NCBI GenBank assembly: GCA_027694045.1
Contig: JAQEWB010000003.1
Location: 21,534-85,533, forward strand
Length of the DNA stretch: 64,000 nt
Direction: 5' to 3'
DNA from: Bacillaceae bacterium OF18-1A
GTDB lineage: Bacteria > Bacillota > Bacilli > Bacillales > Bacillaceae_G
Of this stretch, positions 3,106 to 61,300 are shown piece by piece. A program made the translations under genes and the position numbers. The notes beneath the pieces were generated by a model. That model worked only from the letters and a program-made list of their open reading frames with translations. It was not told the DNA's origin and made no database searches. Position 1 is the first letter of the stretch; each line of letters begins with the position of its first letter.

Positions 3106-3286
3106 ACAAACGCCCCCCTTTTCCAAACCCTTTTTTCTTTATTTTCAGTCAAATCAACCGTGACGACAGACATACGAAACATTTTATCACAATTAAAACT
3201 GCACATCATTATATTTAAAAATGATTACTCCCCAATCCCCTACTGGAAATCAAACATAATATTTAGTACACTATATGTAATATATC

Positions 3287-3335
3287 ATAGGCGATGGAGT
3301 TCGCCATAAACGCTGTTTAGCTAATGACTCCTACC
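3287..3335 (+). promoter_or_regulatory. Fluoride riboswitch (crcB motif)
   Basis: The conserved crcB-motif blocks occur in order: GGCGATGGAGTTCGCC, ATAAACGCT, then GCTAATGACTCCTACC. The next genes encode CrcB/FluC fluoride channels, the classic targets. The 3' strand of the aptamer overlaps the 5' arm of the following terminator, so fluoride binding would favour antitermination. Confidence 0.93.
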
Positions 3336-3366
3336 AGTATAACTACTGGTAGGAGTCTATTTTTTT
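3326..3366 (+). terminator. Expression-platform terminator of the fluoride riboswitch
   Basis: A 14-bp perfect stem, GACTCCTACCAGTA paired with TACTGGTAGGAGTC, is followed by a T-run. The 5' arm shares GACTCCTACC with the aptamer, giving mutually exclusive structures. Confidence 0.9.
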
Positions 3367-20843: not shown

Positions 20844-20966
20844 TATATCGGCGATTTTTCAAGTATATCGACTGTAACTTCAATTATATCAGCGATTTTT
20901 TCAATATATCGACTGTAACTCCAATTATATCAGCGATTCGACATAGAATATCGACCAATCGACAAA
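20844..20966. repeat. 41-bp tandem repeats upstream of the NERD gene
   Basis: Units start at 20844, 20885 and 20926, each 41 bp long: TATATCrGCGATTTTT, then CAAtATATCGAC and TGTAACTyCAAT. The last unit is partial and leads into ATATCGACCAATCGACAA. The same family occurs at 44389 and, degraded, at 5817. The repeats occupy the NERD promoter region. Confidence 0.85.
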
Positions 20967-22231: not shown

Positions 22232-22276
22232 ATAACGTCCCTCCTCTATTTTTACTATTGTAACAAATGTTACTAA

Positions 22277-22560
22277 AAAGCGAAAGTGGCTCGCTCAGAA
22301 TGTGAGGTGGATGGAGCTTCTGACCTTGAGGCGTTCTTTGCCTCTAGAGAAGAAGCGAAGCCGCCGAACATTCTAGCCACTGTAGCTGGATTAAACAAAA
22401 AGCGAAAGTGGCTCGCTTAGAATCTTTGGACATTGGAACTCCCGACAGAGAAGCGCTTTTTGCTTCGTCGGAGGGAGTGAAATGGCCAATAGATTCTAGC
22501 CACTGTAGCTAGATTATACCAAAAGCGAAAGTGGCTCGCTCTTAAGCCACCAAGAAAAAA
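22277..22560. repeat. Tandem structured repeats (about 122 bp) between rnr and smpB
   Basis: Units start at 22277 and 22399 (122 and 123 bp), with a partial third at 22522. In plus orientation each has AAAGCGAAAGTGGCTCGCT, an outer stem (AGAATGT/ACATTCT; AGAATCT/AGATTCT) closed by GGCT/AGCC, and an inner hairpin ending in a gcttttt-like loop. The units differ in sequence, but both strands of each stem change together. The family is the same as at 43820. Confidence 0.85.
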
Positions 22561-43228: not shown

Positions 43229-43810
43229 ATGAATTTAATTCCTACAGTAATTGAACAAACAAATCGTGGAGAACGCGCTTACGATATTTACTCTCGACTA
43301 TTAAAAGACCGCATCATTATGCTAGGTAGTGCAATTGATGACAACGTAGCTAACTCAATCGTTTCCCAGCTTTTATTCTTGGAATCTCAAGATCCAGAAA
43401 AAGATATTCACATCTACATCAACAGCCCTGGTGGTTCTATCACAGCTGGTATGGCAATCTATGATACAATGCAATTTATTAAACCACAAGTATCAACAAT
43501 CTGTATCGGTATGGCTGCATCTATGGGTGCATTCTTACTTGCAGCAGGTGAAAAAGGAAAACGTTATGCACTTCCAAACAGTGAAGTAATGATTCACCAA
43601 CCACTTGGCGGAGCACAAGGTCAAGCGACTGAAATCGAAATCGCAGCTAAACGTATCCTATTCTTACGTGAAAAACTAAACCAAATTCTTGCTGACCGCA
43701 CAGGTCAACCACTTGAAGTACTACAACGCGACACAGACCGCGACAACTTCATGACAGCTGAAAAAGCTCTAGAATACGGTTTAATCGATAAGATCTTTAC
43801 AAATCGTTAA
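43229..43810 (+). CDS. clpP: ATP-dependent Clp protease proteolytic subunit
   Basis: A 193-residue serine peptidase that forms the tetradecameric barrel fed by ClpX, ClpC and ClpE. The catalytic triad is S98 (GMAASMGA), H123 (MIHQPLGG) and D172. It also degrades tmRNA-tagged proteins. RBS AGAAGGAGGAAATAACAG. Its 3' side carries a long structured-repeat array before a terminator, so the mRNA has an unusually long 3' UTR. Confidence 0.98.
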
Positions 43811-43819
43811 TAGATATTT

Positions 43820-44342
43820 AAAGCGGAAGCGGCTCGTTCAGAATGGGAGGAGGATGGAGCTTCTGACAAAGAGGTGCTTTTTACCTCGTCGGAAGAAGCG
43901 AAGCCACCGACCATTCTAGCCGCTGGAGCTAGATACAACTTAAAGCGGAAGCGGCTCGTTCAGAATCGCAGGGCGATGGAGCCCCTGATTCCGAGGCGCT
44001 TTTTGCCTCGAATGAAGGGGCGAAGCGACCGGAGATTCTAGCCGATAGAGCTGGATACAATAAAAGCGGAAGCGGCTCGTTCAGAATCGCAGGGCGATGG
44101 AGCCCCTGATTCCGAGGCGCTTTTTGCCTCGAATGAAGGGGCGAAGCGACCGGAGATTCTAGCCGATGGAGCTGGATACAATAAAAGCGGAAGCGGCTCG
44201 TTCAGCTCTGACTGGCTAAGGTTCTTTCGCATAAAAGGCGCTTTTTGCCTTCTTATGCGGAAGGTTCTTAGACACGAAGAGCTAGCCGCTGGAGCTAGAT
44301 ACAACTAAAAGCGGAAGCGCCCTCTCACAGGGCGCTTTTTTA
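43820..44342 (+). repeat. Tandem structured repeats (about 121 bp, four units plus a partial) downstream of clpP
   Basis: Units start at 43820, 43942, 44063 and 44184 (122, 121, 121, 124 bp); a fifth partial unit at 44308 forms the terminator GCGCCCTctcacAGGGCGC-T6. Units 2 and 3 differ at one base. Each unit has GGCT...AGCC with AGAATC/GATTCT outside and GCCCCT/AGGGGC or GCTTCT/AGAAGC plus GAGGC/GCCTC inside, with loop gcttttt. Stem pairs change together between units. Confidence 0.9.
44317..44342 (+). terminator. clpP transcript terminator
   Basis: AGCGCCCT pairs with AGGGCGCT around a 5-nt loop, then T6. It is built from the start of a fifth repeat unit. Confidence 0.85.
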
Positions 44343-44388
44343 TAGTTAGACTTCCGCACGCATATACCCCACCCTGTATCACTCTAAA

Positions 44389-44505
44389 TATATCAGCGAT
44401 TTTTCAAATATATCGACCGTAACTCCAATTATATCGGCGATTATTTTAATATATCGACGTTTCGACACAACTTATCGACTTACCGACAATTCTCGACAAG
44501 CATGC
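44389..44505. repeat. 41-bp tandem repeats between clpP and crh
   Basis: Units start at 44389 and 44430, 41 bp apart, with the same TATATCrGCGATTTTT and ATATCGACCGTAACTCCAAT blocks as at 20844. The array ends in TATCGACTTACCGACAAT, which matches the degraded copy at 5817. Confidence 0.85.
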
Positions 44506-61134: not shown

Positions 61135-61300
61135 GACAAATGTATATTCTTAGAGTGTTCCTGCTTCTACGTGTCCTGCCTTGCCAACCACTCGCTACTA
61201 CAGTTTGATCTAACACTCCACAGGCGTAAATTCCGATGTAGCCCACCGTACATATATACAATCTATTTACGTTAGTATTGTATATTTTTTTGCTTGTAAA
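61135..61300 (-). ncRNA. Candidate omega-RNA (reRNA) scaffold at the tnpB 3' end
   Basis: Beyond the tnpB stop the minus strand carries GGAGTGTTAGATCAA, then GTGGTTGGCAAGGCAGG, then GTAGAAGCAGGAACACTC. GAGTGTT pairs with AACACTC, and GAAGCAGGAAC is a block commonly seen near the right ends of tnpB elements. A guide would follow at about 61110-61130. Inferred from position and fold only. Confidence 0.5.

What the first reader, a model, noticed from the sequence alone, without database searches (positions are those of the whole stretch)
43820..44342. Tandem 121-bp structured repeats with compensatory changes form the 3' UTR of clpP
Four units and a fragment follow clpP in the same orientation. 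Each can fold into one long arm: GGCT/AGCC and AGAATC/GATTCT outside, then GCCCCT/AGGGGC (or GCTTCT/AGAAGC), then GAGGC/GCCTC (or GAGGT/ACCTC, AAGGC/GCCTT) with a constant gcttttt loop. Where units differ, both sides of a stem differ together, so the structure itself seems selected. The array ends in a terminator made from the first bases of a fifth unit. It could be a mobile hairpin family, an mRNA-stability element or a source of small RNAs.
Basis: seen in the sequence. Interest (0 to 1): 0.75.

Follow-up and report, generated by a model that had tools for sequence, protein, structure and literature searches.

The report
Order-wide hairpin repeat after stop codons
Behind the clpP gene sits a tandem array of a 120-base hairpin that also turns up, often immediately after a gene's stop codon, in most Bacillales genomes sampled here, with a fold that evolution keeps while its sequence changes; it matches no family in the RNA library searched, and what moves it is unknown.

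Summary
Confirmed, and larger than reported. Four units (43819-44301), 13 nt of a fifth and a terminator follow clpP; a second array lies at 22276-22541. All share one rod: AGC/GCT, a 3x3 loop, AGCGSCT/AGSCGCT, a 5-nt bulge, a 6-bp stem, a variable arm and a tip hairpin. Over 39 units 92.8% of pair cells are standard (73.9% shuffled) and 23 of 32 pairs change on both sides. A covariance model hits 188 of 249 sampled genomes of the order of Ectobacillus antri but 3 of 199 of the phylum; Rfam has no match. G.U exceeds A.C 54:19 inside stems, pointing to constraint on RNA of the clpP strand. In 30 of 54 arrays with a same-strand upstream gene the element starts within 9 nt of the stop codon. Unit number is fluid; 54 of 111 arrays end in a partial unit. 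Best reading: a REPIN-like non-autonomous mobile hairpin acting as a 3'-UTR element. Mobiliser unproven: RAYT genes co-occur (OR 4.3) but are not linked; reverse transcriptases do not co-occur. Identity with published bcr2/bcr3 could not be tested.

The parts
43229..43810 (+). clpP, the gene whose 3' end carries the array
43819..43935 (+). unit 1
   Evidence: R1 90.8 bits; fold z -4.9
43941..44057 (+). unit 2
   Evidence: R1 94.5 bits; fold z -2.3 with the rod as centroid
44062..44178 (+). unit 3, almost identical to unit 2
   Evidence: R1 99.1 bits
44183..44301 (+). unit 4, a different subtype with the same fold
   Evidence: R1 105.3 bits; fold z -6.0
44307..44319 (+). partial head of a fifth unit (13 nt)
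44313..44345 (+). terminator-like hairpin overlapping the partial head, with its T run
   Evidence: stem 44313-44339
22276..22392 (+). second array, unit 1, outer stem AGTGGCT/AGCCACT
   Evidence: R1 86.6 bits; fold z -6.1
22398..22515 (+). second array, unit 2
   Evidence: R1 89.9 bits; fold z -6.6
22521..22541 (+). second array, partial head (about 21 nt)

Best explanation
An order-wide family of non-autonomous, REPIN-like mobile hairpins. Each unit is about 117-127 nt: two inverted ends (AAAAGCGGAAGCGSCT ... AGSCGCTGGAGCTRGACA) that pair, and an arm whose sequence drifts while its pairing is kept. SHOWN: common fold, covariation, G.U excess on one strand, filled and empty orthologous sites without an evident target duplication, left end often flush with a stop codon, unit-number change between related genomes. 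INFERRED: (1) a trans-acting enzyme, most likely of the HUH Y1/RAYT type, inserted single units behind an A-rich ...AAG; (2) recombination and slippage between units make and shrink tandem arrays; (3) copies that persist between stop codon and terminator are transcribed and form a rigid 3' rod that, as E. coli REPs do, slows 3' decay or affects the terminating ribosome; this keeps the RNA pairing under selection.
For: Structure: (92.8% cells paired vs 73.9 shuffled; slid controls 32-49%; 23 of 32 pairs change on both sides). RNA level: in Watson-Crick-only helices of 89 non-redundant units G.U 54, A.C 19; 27 and 9 in 45 units found by end patterns without the model; 29:5 where the upstream gene is on the same strand. 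Range: 188 of 249 order, 3 of 199 phylum; 18 of 19 in the family of G003. Mobility: filled versus empty at a site beside trxB and at clpP-crh. Placement: 30 of 54 same-strand left ends within 9 nt of the stop codon, against 0 of 53 right ends facing a stop codon, nearest 19 nt. Turnover: 7 of 14 matched arrays differ in unit number between G016 and G003, none fully empty. RAYT gene in 124 of 188 element-bearing and 19 of 61 other genomes.
Against: No mobiliser linked: 0 of 20 RAYT loci and 1 of 12 Y1 loci (beside a decayed Y1) carry an element nearby; G016, with 46 matches, has no Y1 gene, nor have G005, G006, G012; 17 element-bearing genomes lack PF01797 and PF00078 matches, though one of them (G237) has a weak RAYT match. 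RAYT co-occurrence may be shared ancestry. 36 of 111 arrays are antisense to both neighbours, where a 3'-UTR role fails, yet they keep the fold. The partial unit at the right end of 54 of 111 arrays is not explained by simple HUH insertion. No RNA data were examined.
Confidence: 0.5

Rival explanations
1. Already described: the window copies are one of the published Bacillus cereus repeats, most likely bcr3 or bcr2 (group A, high copy).
For: PMC3446304, passages: bcr1-3 are MITE-like and often lie in UTRs; transcripts with bcr3 have longer half-lives (3.6 vs 2.5, n 39) and bcr3 genes are often housekeeping. PMC6542083, passages: 18 repeats of 100-400 bp; most only on chromosomes. The plasmid search with the array found nothing. 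Both arrays here lie beside housekeeping genes.
Against: PMC6542083 links mobility of these repeats to a TTTAT motif; TTTAT or its complement lies within 15 nt of the left end in 14, of the right in 5 and of both in 0 of 111 arrays (control windows 13 of 219). The family reaches far outside the cereus group. The consensus sequences were not obtainable, so the identity is untested. PMC2267715 also lists a 72-bp B. anthracis family, Bant-1, whose sequence I did not see.
Confidence: 0.4
2. Directional copying, for example target-primed reverse transcription (a bacterial SINE) or rolling-circle one-ended transposition: synthesis starts at the fixed left end (...AAG|AAAAGCGG) and stops anywhere, giving n units plus a fragment.
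For: 54 of 111 arrays end in a partial unit of 12-116 nt while the left end is constant. In G016 23 of 26 arrays run against the leading strand, as lagging-strand priming would give.
Against: RVT_1 does not co-occur (96 of 188 vs 36 of 61, p 0.30); G003 and G016 have no RVT_1 match. 57 of 111 arrays have no fragment, and many single units end at GACA. Strand bias is absent in G001, G024, G011, G022, G005 and moderate in G032.
Confidence: 0.15
3. The paired changes come from template switching between the arms of a palindrome (quasipalindrome correction), not from selection on structure.
For: Long near-palindromes are corrected this way (recalled). Neighbouring units of an array often have identical scores, as if homogenised.
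Against: Such correction yields Watson-Crick pairs on both strands alike; G.U exceeds A.C on one strand 54:19 and 27:9. The excess is weaker in antisense copies (19:9, p 0.09). It may still contribute.
Confidence: 0.15
4. The repeats are transcription terminators, working for genes on the opposite strand through the CCGCTTTTCTT end.
For: The reverse complement of the head ends in a T run after a hairpin; the pattern scan reports such sites on the - strand in both arrays (consensus matches only).
Against: Contexts are mixed: 36 opp/opp, 33 same/same, 17 same/opp, 17 opp/same and 8 incomplete of 111; separate terminator-like hairpins stand beside the clpP array; the G.U asymmetry favours the other strand.
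Confidence: 0.1

Closest known systems
REP / REPIN elements with RAYT transposases
   Same: Short intergenic hairpins with inverted ends, no genes, many copies; tandem clusters, and tandem REP arrays reversed between replichores, are reported for P. fluorescens (PMC3116915, abstract and passages); REPs within 15 nt of a stop codon are said to stall ribosomes (PMC12306157, passages).
   Different: About 120 nt with a long covarying rod; no GTAG or CGTC tag at the ends; other clade; no linked RAYT (0 of 20).
bcr1-bcr18 repeats of the B. cereus group
   Same: In UTRs, some structured, bcr1-3 in high copy (passages).
MITEs (RUP, NEMIS, ERIC, bcr1)
   Same: Non-coding, dispersed, next to genes (PMC3733652, passage).
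   Different: No clear target-site duplication; ends pair through an internal loop. No parent transposon was seen, but none was searched for systematically: 88 head matches, 30 of them fetched.
attC sites of integrons (recalled)
   Same: Conserved ends, variable palindromic middle, bulged bases, same-orientation arrays of about 120 bp.
   Different: Dispersed after many different genes; integrase genes and cassettes were not searched for.

Membership tests
REP/REPIN | inverted ends forming a hairpin in intergenic space, high copy | tested here: met
REP/REPIN | GTAG (or CGTC) tag at the hairpin foot | tested here: not met
   left flank consensus AWAAG, right end GACA; the tag as defining feature is from PMC3733652, abstract passages
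REP/REPIN | cognate RAYT gene flanked by the repeats | tested here: not met
   0 of the 20 RAYT loci fetched and 0 of the three RAYT-like loci L116-L118; co-occurrence only. 20 of more than 150 RAYT matches were examined
MITE | target-site duplication | tested here: not met
   68 single-unit sites: flush 5-nt repeat in 4 vs 0 in a mismatched control, none of 6-7 nt; with offsets 5 vs 3; filled and empty sites
bcr2/bcr3 | sequence match to the published consensus | not testable with these tools
   paper not held; no relevant paper prints the six oligonucleotides searched
bcr1-type repeats | TTTAT motif at the ends | tested here: not met
   both ends in 0 of 111; left 14, right 5; control 13 of 219 windows; motif statement from PMC6542083 passages
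any Rfam 15 family | score above gathering | tested here: not met
   below gathering the best E-value at the array was 0.35
intrinsic terminator | placement mainly downstream of genes on the strand it would stop | tested here: not met
   mixed contexts

The most novel reading that the evidence does not exclude
An order-wide class of structured 3'-UTR elements that enter the genome immediately behind stop codons by a directional copying process (fixed left end, ragged right end, tandem output) not yet described in bacteria, and are kept as RNA: a bacterial counterpart of SINEs, or a REPIN lineage turned into regulatory RNA.
Probability: 0.13. Interest if true: 0.87.

Novelty: new variant of a known kind. 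Interest (0 to 1): 0.57.

Why it matters
If right, most genomes of this order carry copies, in several of those counted dozens, of one RNA-constrained hairpin, often behind stop codons, including behind clpP, and Rfam 15 does not name it. It would give a covariance model for annotating many 3' UTRs, a test bed for how non-autonomous repeats spread without a visible partner, and a direct test of whether REP-like control of 3' ends evolved separately in Gram-positive bacteria.

Tried and rejected
Rfam, plasmid and phage searches of the array: nothing above threshold. Replication-strand bias as a family rule: strong in G016 (23:3 against the leading strand), G003 (6:1), G006 (4:0) and the window (2:0), and in 10-kb regions around whiA (34 of 35 hits on one strand, the other being the reverse of one of them), but absent in G001 12:14, G024 9:11, G011 8:8, G022 2:2, G005 2:4 (leading strand set by skew of each locus, three G016 loci nearly neutral) and moderate in G032 (64:31 of 95 hits, replichores set from 20 skew samples); dropped as a rule. 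'The end fragment copies the first unit': 11 first, 7 last, 4 mixed in 22 heterogeneous arrays; not firm. RT as mobiliser: no co-occurrence. RAYT as linked mobiliser: no linkage. A loose regular-expression census of lone heads and tails was too noisy to use; a scored version found 40 left ends and 14 right ends without their partner outside model units in 1.2 Mb, with 8 and 5 in reversed controls; some are low-scoring units or contig ends, and heads within 6 nt of a unit were excluded. Literature: searches listed no paper that I recognised as describing this sequence; most subscription papers are missing from that library.

Full report
1. What is there. The array is real. TRF finds period 121 at 43820-44205. 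Four units stand at 43819-43935, 43941-44057, 44062-44178 and 44183-44301 on the strand of clpP (43229-43810), then 13 nt of a fifth unit and a terminator-like hairpin, 44313-44339. The window holds a second array of two units and a partial head at 22276-22541, between smpB and rnr and opposite to them (gene names recognised by me). The source looks like Bacillus cereus by my recognition; no whole genome was held.

2. Anatomy. Eight units, five from the window and three from other genomes, fold into the same rod: AGC/GCT, a 3x3 internal loop (GGA against GGA in many), a 7-bp stem AGCGSCT/AGSCGCT, a 5-nt bulge YGNNC on the 5' side, a 6-bp stem AG..../....CT, a variable arm, and a tip such as AAGGCG-CTTTT-TGCCTT (unit 2 of the clpP array has it as centroid, not MFE). 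On 39 diverse units 92.8% of cells form standard pairs (shuffled 73.9; structure slid by 1-3 columns 32-49), 23 of 32 pairs have changes on both sides, and one pair of the 6-bp stem uses CG, UA, GC and AU in 12, 12, 10 and 4 units. The alignment was made by MAFFT, not fitted to the structure; the structure came from the same alignment. Six of the 45 units collected were left out of it. A mini form of 39 nt, the two ends fused, also exists.

3. RNA or DNA. If RNA of one strand is constrained, G.U should be tolerated inside stems and A.C not. Folding with Watson-Crick pairs only and counting 1x1 mismatches flanked by pairs gives G.U 54, A.C 19 in 89 non-redundant units (p 5e-5). In 45 units collected by end patterns alone it is 27 to 9. 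By context it is 29:5 with the upstream gene on the same strand, 19:9 antisense, 7:1 other. The head-to-tail strand, the one in clpP mRNA, is also the more stable fold in 82 of 89 units, part of which is composition (mean difference -6.3 against -3.7 kcal/mol in mononucleotide shuffles).

4. Range. R1 hits 18 of 19 genomes of the family of G003 (Ectobacillus antri), 188 of 249 in an even sample of its order and 3 of 199 of the phylum, G003 and G071 of the order sample among the three. Copy numbers are lower bounds because only the best candidates per genome are scored. Named carriers among 80 whiA loci: 22 of 80, in Ectobacillus, Neobacillus, Cytobacillus, Mesobacillus, Metabacillus, Fredinandcohnia, Peribacillus, an Anoxybacillus MAG and unclassified Bacillus; no hit in ten loci of named species of the B. 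subtilis, B. pumilus and B. licheniformis type. In 7 of the 80 a hit lies where the clpP-crh interval is expected; in L028, L043 and L054 I saw the clpP end beside it.

5. Sites. I examined 111 arrays in loci taken around chosen hits: all hits that one search reported in G016, parts of G001, G024, G022, G003, G011, G005, G006, and the window. Sizes: 68 single, 23 double, 7 triple, 11 of four, 2 of five. Genes are plain ORF calls of at least 80 codons. The left flank reads AWAAG before AAAAGCGG. Of 54 arrays with a same-strand upstream ORF, 30 begin 1-9 nt after its stop codon (median of all 54: 6), with 30 different flanks from 8 sources; right ends facing a stop codon show 0 of 53 within 9 nt, nearest 19 (right ends are measured from the last complete unit, so partial units lengthen some distances). 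Of 55 left ends facing the start codon of an opposite gene, 8 lie 19-23 nt away, 7 of them with a CTCC-type sequence like a ribosome-binding site between. Two sites compared across species show presence and absence without an evident target duplication: L073 full, L030 mini, L071, L012, L053 empty; L028 (short form) and L043 (a 214-nt related form) filled, L045, L050, L020, L070 empty. At 68 single-unit sites flush direct repeats of 5 nt occur in 4, against 0 in a mismatched control, none longer.

6. Array dynamics. In 54 of 111 arrays the last complete unit is followed by a partial unit of 12-116 matched nt: G001 15 of 26, G016 15 of 26, G024 11 of 20, G003 6 of 7, window 2 of 2, G005 3 of 6, G022 1 of 4, G011 1 of 16, G006 0 of 4. 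Between G016 and G003, whose flank pieces are 88-98% alike, 14 arrays could be matched on both sides: 7 have equal unit numbers, 7 differ (for example 5 and 3, 3 and 1), and in three of these G003 keeps only a partial head; none is fully empty. Positions are therefore old on this scale and unit number is fluid.

7. Who moves it. Reverse transcriptase (RVT_1) shows nothing: 96 of 188 and 36 of 61. Against a RAYT: no linkage (0 of 20 loci) and carriers without Y1, such as G016. Shared ancestry is not controlled.

8. Strand. Against the leading strand: G016 23 of 26, G003 6 of 7, G006 4 of 4, window 2 of 2; no bias in G001, G024, G011, G022, G005. Some tandem REP arrays in P. fluorescens are also reversed between replichores (PMC3116915, passages).

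9. Function. Position between stop codon and terminator, RNA-strand constraint and high stability fit a 3'-end element. E. coli REPs within 15 nt of a stop codon are said to stall ribosomes (PMC12306157, passages, citing earlier work). In B. cereus, transcripts with bcr3 decay more slowly, with the authors' caution that these genes are often housekeeping (PMC3446304, passages). Whether this family is bcr3 is open. About a third of arrays (36 of 111) are antisense to both neighbours, so such a function is not general.

10. Verdict. Confirmed, much broader than a cereus-group repeat, and missing from Rfam 15. Kind: REPIN-like hairpin repeat, with unusual length, RNA-strand covariation and stop-codon placement. 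Mobiliser and benefit remain inferred.

Noticed in passing
window 20844-20938 and 44381-44458: A 41-bp repeat built on TATATCGAC/TATATCAGCG lies near both hairpin arrays.
   Followed up: no
L043:6309-6522, L137:13299-13506, G031 (10 of 13 hits 143-148 nt): A longer related form (about 145-214 nt) in Cytobacillus and Neobacillus looks like a sister family.
   Followed up: partly
L289:7610-8110: An array alternates two subtypes by score (63.5, 108.4, 64.3, 110.7 bits), as if a dimer had been duplicated.
   Followed up: no
L247:5668-5784 and L251:5432-5548 (G016): Two copies share the same flanks on both sides, so the element lies inside a larger repeated segment.
   Followed up: no
window 61158-61224 and 3281-3340: RAGATH-18 RNA (63.5 bits) and a fluoride riboswitch (60.4 bits).
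   Followed up: no
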